Shown: positions 11,028-21,022, counted from the stretch's first letter. The stretch: 64,000 nucleotides of DNA from Neomegalonema perideroedes DSM 15528 (GCF_000374145.1 NZ_KB893653.1:1163923-1227922); one strand, 5' to 3'. Notes: a model not told the origin generated them from the letters alone. Numbers and translations: made by a program.

Positions 11028-11102
11028 TGGGGCGTAGCCAAGCGGTAAGGCAGCGGATTTTGATTCCGCCATGCGGAGGTTCGAATCCTCCCGCCCCAGC
11101 CA
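11028..11102 (+). tRNA. tRNA-Gln(TTG), CCA encoded
   Basis: The cloverleaf has acceptor TGGGGCG/CGCCCCA with discriminator G, a D arm AGCCAAGCGGTAAGGCAGC without a long loop, and a T arm with GGTTCGAATCC. The anticodon loop TTTTGAT gives anticodon TTG for codon CAA. CCA is encoded at 11100-11102. Confidence 0.97.
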
Positions 11103-16286: not shown

Positions 16287-16748
16287 ATGACGACCGCCCG
16301 CTTTGAGGAATTGGCGGAGGATTTCGCCCTGTTCGACGATTGGGAGGATCGGTATTCGGCGGTGATCGATCTGGGCAAGGCCATGCCGCCTTTGCCCGAG
16401 GCCGCCAAGACCGAAGCCGCCAAGGTGCGCGGCTGCGCGAGTCAGGTCTGGCTCGTCATGGGCGCGCGGCCCGGCCCGGACGGCGCGGCGCGTCTGACCA
16501 TCGAAGGCGACAGCGACGCCCATATCGTGCGCGGGCTGGTGGCGGTGATGCGCGCGCTTTACGAGGGCCTGACCCCTGAAGAGGCCCTCGCCGTGGATCC
16601 TCAGGCGGCTTTGCGGCGGCTGGGGCTGGCCGATCATCTCAGCAGCCAGCGCAGCAACGGCGTGCGGGCCATGGCGGAGCGCATTCGGGCTCAGGCCGCC
16701 GCTTTGCAGAGCGCCTCCGCCCCGGGCGGCGGCGGCGCAGGCGGATAG
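16287..16748 (+). CDS. sufE: SufE family cysteine desulfurase sulfur acceptor
   Basis: This 153-residue protein has the SufE fold sequence: FALFDDWEDRYSAVIDLGK, PPLPEAAKTEAAKVRGCASQVW with the sulfur-accepting Cys50, then LTIEGDSDAHIVRGLVAVM and a C-terminal SSQRSNGVRAM. It takes persulfide from SufS and passes it to the Fe-S scaffold. No other suf gene is nearby, which is common when sufE is unlinked. A GGAG-type site precedes the ATG. The tandem hairpin repeats end 39 bp upstream. Confidence 0.93.
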   Translation: MTTARFEELAEDFALFDDWEDRYSAVIDLGKAMPPLPEAAKTEAAKVRGCASQVWLVMGARPGPDGAARLTIEGDSDAHIVRGLVAVMRALYEGLTPEEALAVDPQAALRRLGLADHLSSQRSNGVRAMAERIRAQAAALQSASAPGGGGAGG

Positions 16749-16759
16749 GGCGAAGCGGG

Positions 16760-16864
16760 TCAGAAGGGCGGCGGCGCGCGCAAAATCGTCTCGGCGAGGG
16801 CCAAAGCGGAATCAAGCGTCAGGCCGATCTGGATAGCGATAAGACGAATTAAAAACCGTTCCAT
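16760..16864 (-). CDS. Possible 34-residue hydrophobic peptide (weak call)
   Basis: On the minus strand an ATG at 16864 opens 34 codons encoding MERFLIRLIAIQIGLTLDSA followed by LALAETILRAPPPF and a stop. The N-terminal half is amphipathic or membrane-like. AAAGAG lies a few bases upstream of the ATG, and the upstream DNA is AT-rich and promoter-like. It is too short to test by composition. No family is recognised. It would be transcribed divergently from the SIR2-TPR gene. Confidence 0.3.
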   Translation of the reverse strand: MERFLIRLIAIQIGLTLDSALALAETILRAPPPF

Positions 16865-17138
16865 GTTTTTCTCTTTATGAGACATAATGAACTGTTAATT
16901 TGTTCTGTCATGGAACTTTTAACCGGTCAATAACTATCTATGTAAACTTTCGTATGCAGACTGTTTTTTCTTGCCCCAATTTCGCCCCGCTGATGTAATG
17001 TTCGCGACATCGGGAAAAGGCCCCGATCCCGCCGCGACGCGCCTTCGCGCGCAGCGGTCCAGACAAGACGGGTGGAGCAGTGTGGCGGGCGTCGTCGGAT
17101 CCCAAGACTGAACGCGGCGAAGCCCGCGGAGGACGGTC
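16865..17138. promoter_or_regulatory. AT-rich divergent control region before the SIR2-TPR gene
   Basis: This stretch has no convincing gene. It is AT-rich from about 16840 to 16990. It holds an 8-bp inverted repeat, GTTCCATG at 16858-16865 and CATGGAAC at 16909-16916. It also holds a near match to the CtrA site, TTAA-CCGGTCA-ATAA at 16919-16933. No well-spaced sigma70 promoter was found by eye. The sites could control the small minus-strand frame, the SIR2-TPR gene, or both. Confidence 0.35.
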
Positions 17139-20100
17139 ATGACGGCTGCGTCTTCAGGCGCCGGATTGCGCCGCATTTCAGCCTTCGAATTCGTCCGTCG
17201 CCTGCGGCGGGCGCTGGAGAGGCGCGAGGGTCGTTTCGCGTGGTTCCTCGGCGCGGGCTGCTCGACCGGCTCGGGCGTGCCGGACGCCGCCGCCGCCGCG
17301 CGGCTTTGGCTGCGCGAGCTGAAGCATCTGGAGACGGGATCCGGCGAGGGCGTGGAGGCTTGGGCCTCGGAGCGTTTTTACGGCTTCGATCCGGCCGATC
17401 CGGCCGCCGTCTACGGCAAAGTCCTCGACGATCTTTTCCACACCGAACAGGACCGCGCCCGCGAGATCGAGCGGCTGGCGGCCCTCGGCGAGCCCGGCTT
17501 CGCCTACGCCACCCTCGCGCAGCTCATGACTCACGAGGTCTGGGGCGAGGCCTGCAATTTCGCGCTCACCGCCAATTTCGACGATCTCGCCGCCGACGCT
17601 CTTTATCTTTACGGCGCGCGCAAGCCCCGCGTGCTGACGCATGAATCCTTCGGCCCCCGGATGCGGCTCTCCAGCCTGCGCCCGACGGTGGTGAAGCTGG
17701 CCGGAGACGCCCATTTCGGCGCCGGTCTGGATGCGAATCGCCTGCGCTTCGCGCCGGATCTGCGCGAGCGGGTGGGGGCCAACCTCGCCGACCGCACTTT
17801 GGTCTTCCTCGGCTATGGCGGACGCGATTCCGCCGTGGCCGACCTCATGCGCGGCCTGCCCGACGGCGCTCCGAGCGGCGGCGTGTATTGGGTGAACGCC
17901 GCGCCGCCGGGCGAGGCTCTGGCGGAATGGCTGGCCGAGCGCAAGGCGCTCTGGGTGACCCAGGGCGATTTCGAGGAATGGGCCTGGCTGGTCCGCCGCG
18001 AATTCGACTTGCCCGAGCCGCGGCCTCTGCGGCTGGAGGCGGCTTTGCGCGCCTACGCCCGCCAGAACGCCGAACTCGCCGACCGCGCGGAGCTGCGCCG
18101 CAAGGTGGCCGAGGGCGAAGCCGCCGCCGCCCGGGCCGTCGCGCCCGCGCCGCCGCCGCCCGCGCCTCCTCCTTCTTCGGAGCCTTCGGCGGCGGAGGGC
18201 GGCGAGGAGGCGGGCAGGGGGCCGCGTCTGATCGCCCCCGCCACGCGCTTTCGGCCCGCCATGCGGCCCGAGCCTGAAATCCGCGATCCCGAGCCCTCCG
18301 CCGCGCCGGAGTCGTCTCCGGCGTCTTTCGAGCCGGAGGCCGCCGCGCCGCCTCCGCCCCCGGAGGAGCCGCTCTTCGCCTTCCCGACGGAGGACGCCCT
18401 CTCGCCGGAGGAGGAGGAGGCCGCCGATCTGGCGCGTCTGAATCTGCCGCCCGCTCCGCGCCGCCTTCTGGCGCGCGAGGCCGCCTTAGAGGGCGAACGC
18501 CGCTTTCAGGAGGCTCTGCGCGCCCATCCGCGCGACGCGGGGCTGATGGCGCGCTACGCCGAATTCCTCGCGGTGGGCCGCCGCGACGACAACGCCGCCG
18601 AGCATTATTTCAACCGCGCCCTCGACGCGGATCCCAACGACGCCGATTCCCTGCGGCTCTTCGCGGAATTCCTCTGGCGCCGCCGCGGCGACCGGACGCG
18701 GGCCGAGGATTGCTTCCGGCTGGCGCTCAACGCCGATCTCTCTTCTCCCGAGACGCTTTGCGCCTATGGCGAATTCCTCGCCGAGGCTCAGGCCGCGCTC
18801 GACGCCGCCGAGGACTGCTTCCGCCTCGCGGGCGAGATCGATCCGCGCCGCGCCGACACGCTCCGCCGCACCGCCGCCTTCCTCGCGCTGCGGCGCGGAG
18901 AGGAGGAGGCCGCGCTCTCGCTGCTCAAGCTGGCGGCGGCGACCGGAGATCCGGCCTCGCTGGTCGCTCTGGCGCGGCATCTGGCCGAGCGCCGGGGCGA
19001 CGTGGAGGGCGCCGACCGCGCCTTGCTGGAGGCTCTGGAGGCCGCGCCGCAGGATCCGGCGGTCTGGCGGGCGCGGGGCGAATTCCTCGCCGCCCGGCGC
19101 GGCGACGCCGACGGCGCCCGCGAGGCTTTCGAGCGCTCCATCGCGCTGGATCCGCGCGATCCGGCGGCTCAAATCGCCTGCGGGCGCTTCCTGCGGACGC
19201 AAGGCGCGCTCGACGCCGCCGAGGAGCGCTTGTCCCGCGCCGTGGCGCAGGATCCCGGCGCCGCCGAATCTCTGGCCGCCCTCGCCGAATTTCAGGAGGA
19301 GGCCCGGGGCGATCTCGACGCCGCCGAGGATCTGTATCGCCGCGCCTCCCGCAGCGCCCCCCGCGACGGGCTCGCCCGCGCCAATTACGCCGATTTCCTC
19401 GCCCGCGCCCGCAACGCCCTCGACGCCGCCGAGGCGGGCTTCCGCAAGGCTCTGGCCGCCGATCCGCATAATCTGGCGGCGCAGCGCATGTACGGCGCCT
19501 TCCTCGCCCAGAGGCGCGGCGAATGGGGGCGGGGTCTGGAGATTCTGCGCGCCGCCGTCGACTCCGCTCCGGGCGACGCCGCTTTGCGGCGCGATCTGGC
19601 GCGGGCTCTGGCGCTGGTCCCCGCCGAGCGCGAGGCCGCCCGCGCCGCCTTCGAGGCGGCTTTGGCCCTCGCGCCTTTCGACGCGCGTCTGGCGGCTTCG
19701 GCGGCGGCCTTCCACGCCGCGACGGGCGACCGCTCCGCCGCCGAGGCGCTGTATCGCCGGGCTCTGGAGGGCGACGGGCTCGAATCGGAGATCTTCGCCG
19801 AGGCCGCCGCCGCCTTCTTCGCCCAAGGCCGCCGCGCCGACGGGCTGCGCACGCTGGACCGCGGCTTCGAGGCCATGGCTCTGGGGCCGGAGGGCGGGCG
19901 GCGGCGTCCGGCTTCGGCGATGCTGGCGCTTTGGCATCTGCGCTACGCCTTCGACGCGCCGCGCCGGGGCGAGGCTCTGAAGGCTTCGTTGGCGCTGATC
20001 CGCACCGGGGCGCGTCTGGAGGCGGGCTTCCTCGACGCGGCTCTGGCTCAGGCCCTGTCGGGCGGCCATCCCGAGCCTGAGACCCTGCGCGCCCTCGCCC

Positions 20101-20153
20101 GCGCCGCCGAGGGCGATCCGCCGCCGCCCGGCCTGCTCTCCGCCGGATTATGA
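17139..20153 (+). CDS. SIR2-like domain protein with long TPR array
   Basis: The 1004-residue protein starts with a SIR2-like NAD-binding domain: FLGAGCSTGSGVPD (GAGCS 38-42), ALTANFDDLAADAL (Asn146, Asp148) and LVFLGYGGRDS (225-231). The expected KLHG motif reads VVKLAGDAHF (186-193), so the His thought to be catalytic is Ala188, with His192 close by. Residues 320-430 are a Pro/Glu-rich linker. From about 440 to 960 run roughly 14 helical repeats of 34-37 residues of the form AEFL....G...AAE..F.RAL..DP. SIR2-TPR proteins are often linked to phage defence by NAD+ loss, but no defence genes flank this one. Its stop overlaps the next start (ATGA). Base use is like its neighbours. Confidence 0.75.
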   Translation: MTAASSGAGLRRISAFEFVRRLRRALERREGRFAWFLGAGCSTGSGVPDAAAAARLWLRELKHLETGSGEGVEAWASERFYGFDPADPAAVYGKVLDDLFHTEQDRAREIERLAALGEPGFAYATLAQLMTHEVWGEACNFALTANFDDLAADALYLYGARKPRVLTHESFGPRMRLSSLRPTVVKLAGDAHFGAGLDANRLRFAPDLRERVGANLADRTLVFLGYGGRDSAVADLMRGLPDGAPSGGVYWVNAAPPGEALAEWLAERKALWVTQGDFEEWAWLVRREFDLPEPRPLRLEAALRAYARQNAELADRAELRRKVAEGEAAAARAVAPAPPPPAPPPSSEPSAAEGGEEAGRGPRLIAPATRFRPAMRPEPEIRDPEPSAAPESSPASFEPEAAAPPPPPEEPLFAFPTEDALSPEEEEAADLARLNLPPAPRRLLAREAALEGERRFQEALRAHPRDAGLMARYAEFLAVGRRDDNAAEHYFNRALDADPNDADSLRLFAEFLWRRRGDRTRAEDCFRLALNADLSSPETLCAYGEFLAEAQAALDAAEDCFRLAGEIDPRRADTLRRTAAFLALRRGEEEAALSLLKLAAATGDPASLVALARHLAERRGDVEGADRALLEALEAAPQDPAVWRARGEFLAARRGDADGAREAFERSIALDPRDPAAQIACGRFLRTQGALDAAEERLSRAVAQDPGAAESLAALAEFQEEARGDLDAAEDLYRRASRSAPRDGLARANYADFLARARNALDAAEAGFRKALAADPHNLAAQRMYGAFLAQRRGEWGRGLEILRAAVDSAPGDAALRRDLARALALVPAEREAARAAFEAALALAPFDARLAASAAAFHAATGDRSAAEALYRRALEGDGLESEIFAEAAAAFFAQGRRADGLRTLDRGFEAMALGPEGGRRRPASAMLALWHLRYAFDAPRRGEALKASLALIRTGARLEAGFLDAALAQALSGGHPEPETLRALARAAEGDPPPPGLLSAGL

Positions 20154-21022
20154 GCCGCCTCGCCGAATTTCTGGCGGAAGGCGCCGTGCTGGCCGACGCG
20201 GCCATGGCGACGGCGGCTTTCTCCATGGGGCTCCAGCCGGGGGAATCTCCGGATCTCTGGGCCTTCGCCCATCCTGAGAGGGCGGCGGAGATTCATCGCG
20301 CCCATCGGGCGGCGGGGGCGCGGATCCTCCTCACCCAGAGCTTTGGAGCCAATCGCCGGCGTCTGAAGCCCTTCGGCGCGGAGGATCGCTGCGCGGAGGT
20401 CAACCGCGCGGCGGCGGCGCGCGCCAAGGTCGTCGCGCAAGAGGGCGCGGGCGCGGGCGTCCTCGTGGCGGGCTGCCTCGGGCCGAGCGGAGTCTTCGCG
20501 CTCTCCGCCGATTGGGAGGCGGGATTTTACGAACAAGGCCGCGCTTTGCTGGAAGGCGGGGCGGATCTGCTCTGGGCGGAGACTCTGGGCGATCTGGCGG
20601 AATGGCGGGCGGCGGCTTCGGCGGCGGCGCGTCTGGGGGCGCCTTTCTGCTCCACGCTGAGCTTCGAGGCGCCCGGCGGCCTGACCCGAAACGGCGTCTC
20701 GCCGGAGGAGTTCGTCCGCGCGGCCATGAGCCTGCCCGAGCCGCCTGCGGCTCTGGGCGTGAATTGCGGCGGCGGGCCGGATCAGGTTCTGGAGAGCCTC
20801 GGGCGTCTGGCGCGGACGGCGCCTAAGGCGATCCTCATCGCCAAGCCCTCGGCGGGGCTTCCCCGTCTGGAGGGCGCAGCCGTCGTCTATGACTGGACGC
20901 CGGAGGCGGCGGGGCTCTGGGCGCAAGAGGCCCGGCGGCTCGGCGCGCGGATCCTCGGCGGCTGCTGCGGAACAGAGGCGGCGCATCTCGCCGCCATGGG
21001 CGCGGCGCTGAAGATAAATTAA
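20150..21022 (+). CDS. Homocysteine S-methyltransferase family protein
   Basis: This 290-residue protein fits the zinc-dependent homocysteine/betaine-homocysteine methyltransferases. It has LADAAMATAAFSMGL, ILLTQSFGANRRRL, and the three zinc Cys in LGVNCGGGPDQ and ILGGCCGTEAAH. The methyl donor cannot be told from sequence; glycine betaine, S-methylmethionine or a corrinoid partner are options. The ATG at 20150 overlaps the SIR2-TPR stop by ATGA, so its translation is probably coupled to that gene. It ends in a 2-3 bp overlap with the convergent DsbD-N gene, leaving no room for a terminator. Confidence 0.85.
   Translation: MSRLAEFLAEGAVLADAAMATAAFSMGLQPGESPDLWAFAHPERAAEIHRAHRAAGARILLTQSFGANRRRLKPFGAEDRCAEVNRAAAARAKVVAQEGAGAGVLVAGCLGPSGVFALSADWEAGFYEQGRALLEGGADLLWAETLGDLAEWRAAASAAARLGAPFCSTLSFEAPGGLTRNGVSPEEFVRAAMSLPEPPAALGVNCGGGPDQVLESLGRLARTAPKAILIAKPSAGLPRLEGAAVVYDWTPEAAGLWAQEARRLGARILGGCCGTEAAHLAAMGAALKIN

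What the first reader, a model, noticed from the sequence alone, without database searches (positions are those of the whole stretch)
17139..21022. SIR2-TPR protein with the catalytic His replaced, coupled to a homocysteine methyltransferase
The sequence shows an intact SIR2 glycine motif (GAGCS 38-42) and TANFDD (144-149), but VVKLAGDAHF where SIR2-like NADases have KLHG. The His used by Dsr2/ThsA-type enzymes is Ala188, with His192 four residues on. About 14 TPR-like units follow. The stop overlaps the start of a zinc homocysteine methyltransferase (ATGA). Known SIR2-TPR proteins work in abortive phage defence, but this one has housekeeping neighbours and native-looking base use. It may be an NAD-derivative sensor or a novel two-gene unit linked to methyl-cycle metabolism.
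Basis: partly seen in the sequence, partly recalled or inferred. Interest (0 to 1): 0.62.

Follow-up and report, generated by a model that had tools for sequence, protein, structure and literature searches.

The report
Domesticated SIR2-TPR missing its catalytic histidine
An anti-phage-type NAD-cleaving protein appears to have settled permanently beside a methionine-synthesis gene in the deepest-branching relatives of the Rhodobacteraceae, where most copies have lost the histidine thought to be essential for cutting NAD while the rest of the NAD pocket stays under very strong selection, which suggests a new non-defence role.

Summary
The 1004-aa SIR2-TPR protein (17139-20153) has Ala188 exactly where DSR2 has His171. 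In 6 genera (7 genomes) of one Rhodobacterales family the same gene sits between sufE and the methyltransferase. Its SIR2 domains form a 100/100 clade in which the canonical His reads A,A,Y,Y,F,F and only once H; all 18 SIR2 relatives sampled outside that locus keep it. The other pocket residues are retained and His192 (GDAH) is invariant in the clade. Within the genus the SIR2 domain has dN/dS 0.029, as constrained as CTP synthase (0.065). An RpoB tree places carriers at the base of the family: long vertical residence, unlike the plasmid, prophage and virus-borne relatives. The methyltransferase link is weaker: non-carriers have sufE directly beside the same methyltransferase, and in the window's genus it is an orphan split-methionine-synthase subunit under relaxed selection (0.32) with a full MetH present. 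Best reading: a domesticated SIR2-TPR acting as an NAD-ligand-binding scaffold or crippled NADase. An active enzyme with a relocated base is not excluded. Catalysis is untested and the active-site loop was not modelled confidently.

The parts
17139..20153 (+). SIR2-TPR protein, 1004 aa
   Evidence: translation; Pfam SIR2_2 and TPR families; only SIR2_2 match in the genome
17139..18062 (+). SIR2 domain (residues 1-308)
   Evidence: dN/dS 0.029 against congener L009
17250..17264 (+). GAGCS, residues 38-42 (NAD-binding glycine motif), intact
17568..17585 (+). TANFDD, residues 144-149; Asn146 corresponds to DSR2 Asn133
17694..17714 (+). KLAGDAH, residues 186-192: Ala188 at the catalytic-His position, His192 four residues on (invariant in the resident clade)
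17811..17828 (+). GYGGRD, residues 225-230, intact
18069..18449 (+). low-complexity linker, residues 311-437, least constrained part (dN/dS 0.198), mostly disordered in the model
18537..19880 (+). TPR solenoid, 13 helical-hairpin units (residues 467-914)
   Evidence: AlphaFold2 model, pLDDT mostly 80-94; dN/dS 0.11 for residues 438-1004
19911..20108 (+). conserved C-terminal helical cap (residues 925-990), similar sequence in relatives G877 and G1039
20150..21022 (+). MtgE-type homocysteine methyltransferase, orphan and diverging (DAAMAT for DGATGT, C-terminus shortened)
16287..16748 (+). sufE-like gene, conserved upstream neighbour
   Evidence: synteny by tblastn; the name sufE is from knowledge of the family, not from an HMM search here
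16749..17138 (+). intergenic region upstream of SIR2-TPR, 54.9% GC in a 68% GC window; no Rfam hit

Best explanation
A SIR2-TPR gene of the kind carried by plasmids, prophages and defence islands came to lie between sufE and mtgE in an early member of this Rhodobacterales family and has been inherited vertically since (locus, tree and empty site shown; a single insertion is the simplest reading). After that the canonical general-base His was released from selection and became Ala, Tyr or Phe in most lineages, while GAGxS, NFD, K-GD and GY-G-D stayed fixed (shown). Inferred: the pocket still binds NAD+ or an NAD-derived ligand but hydrolyses it slowly or not at all, and the ligand state is passed to partners held by the 13-unit TPR solenoid. 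That makes it an NAD-state sensor or scaffold rather than an abortive-infection executioner. The methyltransferase is a bystander of the insertion site, with a start-stop overlap that arose only in this genus.
For: Canonical His kept in 18 of 18 SIR2 domains sampled outside the locus and in only 1 of 7 inside it; resident clade monophyletic 100/100. It is the only catalytic-motif column invariant outside that breaks drastically inside the clade. SIR2 dN/dS 0.029 in a pair that both have Ala188, against 0.065 pyrG, 0.084 sufE, 0.32 methyltransferase. Carriers are the basal lineages of the family on RpoB, one change of state. Same rnd/sufE/HMT position in every carrier, and sufE adjacent to HMT in non-carriers. 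Relatives elsewhere lie on plasmids or beside integrases, repressors or defence genes. Literature: ThsA N112A and H152A abolish NAD+ cleavage (PMC7272460); DSR2 H171A is catalytically inactive yet its complex was solved with NAD+ bound (PMC10981675); Ala at the equivalent site of Avs5 abolishes defence (PMC12931631).
Against: No activity, binding or expression data. One resident protein (G648, KIHGDAHL) keeps the His. ThsA H152A did not bind NAD+ and lost its normal oligomer, so an Ala may also weaken ligand binding. Avs5 works with Asn at this position, so a missing His does not by itself prove inactivity. His192 is invariant in the clade and could be catalytic; the model has pLDDT below 50 over residues 188-203, so its position is unknown.
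Confidence: 0.5

Rival explanations
1. Still an active NADase, possibly a fixed core defence gene: His192 of the invariant GDAH, or Asn146/Asp148 with water, replaces the lost general base, and the TPR solenoid senses a phage or stress signal.
For: GDAH is invariant in all 7 resident proteins. G648 and the Rhizobium phaseoli plasmid relative carry both His residues (KIHGDAHL, KLHGDAHL), a plausible two-His intermediate state. Avs5 shows the HG His can be replaced. All other pocket residues are retained.
Against: Ala at this site abolishes or reduces activity in ThsA, DSR2 and Avs5. The position wanders between A, Y, F and H, as expected if it is no longer used. The locus is not mobile and residence is old.
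Confidence: 0.3
2. A functional two-gene unit with the homocysteine methyltransferase, linking NAD sensing to methionine or methyl-cycle metabolism.
For: Adjacency conserved in 6 genera; start-stop overlap in both genomes of the window's genus.
Against: The methyltransferase keeps the same neighbours without SIR2-TPR in non-carriers. In this genus its partner MtgC is gone, MetH is present and the methyltransferase is relaxed (dN/dS 0.32) while SIR2 is not. Gaps of about 90-260 bp in other carriers.
Confidence: 0.08
3. A decaying defence gene: the His loss is the first step of pseudogenisation.
For: Variable residue at the catalytic position; gene absent from most of the family.
Against: dN/dS 0.029 in SIR2 and 0.11 in TPR; open frames of about 1000-1200 aa in every carrier.
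Confidence: 0.04

Closest known systems
SIR2-TPR proteins on plasmids, prophages and viruses (Rhizobium phaseoli pRphaR630c, Methylobacterium currus plasmid, Vibrio phage PE elements, Haloferax virus Halfgib1)
   Same: Related SIR2 domain, several annotated or read as followed by TPR; R. phaseoli, M. currus, G877 and G1039 are the nearest on the tree
   Different: They keep the HG histidine; loci inspected are on mobile elements or among unrelated genes and none is next to the methyltransferase
SPARSA SIR2-APAZ (8jl0, 8in8), DSR2 (8k98), ThsA (8wc0)
   Same: SIR2 pocket motifs (profile E 5e-53, 3e-11, 1.5e-6; Foldseek best hit 8jl0 E 2e-7 from a low-confidence model)
   Different: Proven NADases with HG; no TPR solenoid of this kind; linked to Argonaute, phage tail-tube sensing or cyclic ADPR
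Avs5 (PaAvs5-1) with NG in place of HG
   Same: A SIR2 domain that departs from the HG motif said to be absolutely conserved (PMC12931631)
   Different: Asn replaces His and is functional in a STAND ATPase; here Ala/Tyr/Phe in a TPR protein at a fixed chromosomal site
MtgE, homocysteine subunit of the split methionine synthase of roseobacters (PMC12478193)
   Same: The downstream gene is of this type; other carriers keep a stand-alone mtgC, some with a DUF1638-like gene nearby
   Different: In the window's genus it is an orphan with altered DGAxGT motif and no stand-alone MtgC

Membership tests
SIR2_2 (PF13289) | Score above curated cut-off | tested here: met
   33.2 bits against 24.5; 37.4 bits in genome search
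SIR2_2 (PF13289) | GAGxS, NFD and GYxGxD motifs | tested here: met
   All invariant in window, clade and outgroups
SIR2-type NADase (DSR2/ThsA/SPARSA) | Catalytic His of the HG motif | tested here: not met
   Ala188 in the column of DSR2 His171
SIR2-type NADase (DSR2/ThsA/SPARSA) | NAD+ hydrolysis | not testable with these tools
   needs biochemistry
SIR2-type antiphage defence | Mobile or defence-island context, patchy distribution | tested here: not met
   Fixed locus in basal lineages, one state change on RpoB tree
SIR2-type antiphage defence | Protection against phage | not testable with these tools
   needs plaque assays
MtgE split methionine synthase subunit (downstream gene) | Zn-binding Cys motifs (NCG, GGCCG) | tested here: met
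MtgE split methionine synthase subunit (downstream gene) | DGAxGT homocysteine motif and full C-terminus | tested here: not met
   DAAMAT, about 45 aa shorter
MtgE split methionine synthase subunit (downstream gene) | Stand-alone cobalamin protein MtgC in the genome | tested here: not met
   Only B12-binding_2 match lies in a 1284-aa MetH-sized frame; other carriers have frames of 238-374 aa

The most novel reading that the evidence does not exclude
An NAD-cleaving anti-phage effector was domesticated early in a bacterial family into a chromosomal regulatory pseudo-sirtuin: it binds an NAD-derived ligand without cutting it, or cuts it with a base relocated by four residues, and signals through a 13-repeat TPR scaffold.
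Probability: 0.5. Interest if true: 0.75.

Novelty: new variant of a known kind. Interest (0 to 1): 0.55.

Why it matters
The HG histidine has been described as absolutely conserved in Sir2 domains (PMC12931631), with Avs5 the one recent exception found here. A whole clade that gave it up while holding the rest of the pocket under strong selection is a natural experiment on what the His is needed for. It is also a testable case of a bacterial defence NADase becoming a resident cellular gene. G648 (His kept) and the Ala/Tyr/Phe members give ready-made comparisons.

Tried and rejected
Local sequencing or annotation accident: rejected, substitution shared by independent genomes. Pseudogene: rejected by dN/dS. 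Methyl-cycle unit as main function: down-weighted by the sufE-HMT empty site, loss of MtgC, MetH presence and relaxed HMT. Structural placement of His192: AlphaFold2 of the SIR2 domain reached only pLDDT 57 and below 50 in the loop, and the full-length model was no better there, so no claim is made. Foldseek on that model was used only as weak support. IMG/VR scan gave no relatives. Rfam found only a tRNA at 11028-11099, no riboswitch upstream. Promoter scan: one minus-strand match, not informative. Literature search for 'SIR2-TPR' returned nothing.

Full report
What is there. The window holds a 1004-aa SIR2-TPR gene (17139-20153, +) whose stop overlaps the start of a 290-aa homocysteine methyltransferase gene (20150-21022, +) by ATGA. 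Pfam confirms SIR2_2, several TPR models and S-methyl_trans. It is the only SIR2_2 protein in the genome. The genome's nearest named relative is a Neomegalonema MAG (L009, SIR2 domain 98% identical), order Rhodobacterales. A profile of 16 related SIR2 domains aligned to solved structures puts Ala188 in the column of DSR2 His171 and Asn146 in that of DSR2 Asn133.

Relatives in the same place. Genome searches found close relatives (47-53% identity in the SIR2 domain outside the genus) in 6 genera out of 396 sampled: the window's genus (G000, G530), G008, G017, G054, G195, G648. In every one the gene stands between a sufE-like gene and the homocysteine methyltransferase, downstream of rnd. Three non-carriers (G001, G004, G015) have sufE directly before the methyltransferase, about 30-60 bp apart by tblastn ends, with no SIR2 gene between. 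So the SIR2-TPR gene sits inside an older rnd ... sufE - mtgE block, and adjacency to the methyltransferase follows from where it sits. On an RpoB tree the sampled carriers are the basal branches, non-carriers form a 97/93 clade, and presence needs one change (G008 and G530 gave no usable RpoB match). The grouping of G017, G195 and G648 is 100/100 on RpoB and the corresponding SIR2 group is 100/99, which fits vertical inheritance. Whether this is one gain in a carrier clade or ancestral presence with one loss is not resolved.

Relatives elsewhere. Nearest relatives outside the locus are G877 (another alphaproteobacterial family, 594-aa SIR2-TPR), G1039 (another family of the phylum, 858 aa) and plasmid proteins of Rhizobium phaseoli and Methylobacterium currus. 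More distant ones sit beside integrase or repressor genes in Vibrio phage elements and a Haloferax pleolipovirus, beside an integrase on a Pantoea plasmid, or near Qat defence genes on a Rhizobium plasmid. None of these loci has the methyltransferase next to it.

The histidine. In an alignment of 25 SIR2 domains, 18 of 18 outside the locus have His at this position; inside it the residues are A, A, Y, Y, F, F and H (G648). The resident seven are one clade at 100/100 in a tree built without the motif columns, and at least 2 changes of state are needed; two losses with G648 keeping the His, or one loss with regain, fit equally well (parsimony reading, inference). Of the columns invariant outside, G38, A39, G40, S42, Y92, P119, N146, F147, D148, P182, K186, D190, G225, Y226, G228, D230 and W251 are all kept in the clade; only 188 changes drastically, and the other departures are mild (L126M, T144S, L150M, S232A/C, L237M/F). 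His192 is invariant in the clade; among the outgroups only the R. phaseoli protein has it.

Selection. Between the window and L009, both with Ala188, dN/dS is 0.029 for SIR2, 0.198 for the linker and 0.11 for the TPR part, against 0.065 for pyrG, 0.084 for sufE, 0.165 for rnd and 0.32 for the methyltransferase. SIR2 differs from the methyltransferase at P = 4e-9 and does not differ significantly from pyrG (P = 0.07). The domain is functional, not decaying. These are single-pair Nei-Gojobori estimates.

The methyltransferase. It is of the MtgE type, the homocysteine subunit of the split methionine synthase of roseobacters (PMC12478193; assignment by domain, position and similarity to the carriers' proteins). 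In G648 and G054 a DUF1638-like gene and mtgC follow it. In the window's genus the only B12-binding_2 domain lies in a 1284-1290 aa frame, the size of MetH, and the same contig position in G000 carries an S-methyl_trans domain in that 1284-aa frame; no stand-alone MtgC was found. The protein has DAAMAT for DGATGT, lacks about 45 C-terminal residues, but keeps the zinc Cys motifs. So methionine synthesis has probably moved to MetH, while SIR2-TPR is still held tightly. This argues against methyl-cycle coupling as the reason for keeping SIR2-TPR.

Structure. AlphaFold2 was run with four sequences only. The SIR2 model is poor (pLDDT 57; residues 188-203 below 50), so whether His192 can reach the catalytic place cannot be said. 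Foldseek nevertheless ranks SPARSA SIR2 first (E 2e-7) and DSR2 next. The full-length model shows 13 TPR hairpins at pLDDT mostly 80-94 and a C-terminal cap.

Mechanism. Mutating this His to Ala abolishes NAD+ cleavage by ThsA (PMC7272460) and decreases that of DSR2 (PMC10981675), and Ala at the site abolishes Avs5 defence (PMC12931631). DSR2 H171A still yielded an NAD+-bound structure, whereas ThsA H152A did not bind NAD+ and was altered in its oligomer. The most likely reading is therefore a domesticated SIR2-TPR that keeps an NAD-type ligand pocket but not efficient hydrolysis, with the TPR solenoid as partner-binding arm. The main rival is an NADase with another base, His192 or Asn146 with water. 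Shown: locus, phylogeny, substitution, selection. Inferred: ligand binding, loss of hydrolysis, sensor or scaffold role.

Novelty. It is a member of the SIR2_2 family that fails the His criterion of SIR2-type NADases, so it is filed as a variant, not as a DSR2/ThsA-type enzyme. The closest known exception is the NG motif of Avs5. No paper using the term SIR2-TPR was found in the library searched.

Noticed in passing
20150-21022: Orphan, fast-evolving MtgE-type homocysteine methyltransferase in a genus that has a full MetH and no stand-alone MtgC: apparent replacement of a split methionine synthase by MetH.
   Followed up: partly
L010 7980-11471 (G648): The only resident SIR2-TPR with both the canonical His and the +4 His (KIHGDAHL), useful as a natural comparison.
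   Followed up: partly
16749-17138: Intergenic region upstream of SIR2-TPR is 54.9% GC against 68% for the window; may hold a promoter of its own.
   Followed up: partly
L098 6230-7951 (G1248) and L083 (Photobacterium toruni plasmid): SIR2-TPR relatives with HRD in place of HGD (KIHRDL): the glycine after the catalytic His is replaced.
   Followed up: no
L088 4058-7266: Rhizobium ruizarguesonis plasmid SIR2 gene directly followed by a gene annotated nuclease PIN, just downstream of a Qat defence system.
   Followed up: no
11028-11099: tRNA gene (Rfam RF00005) on the + strand.
   Followed up: no
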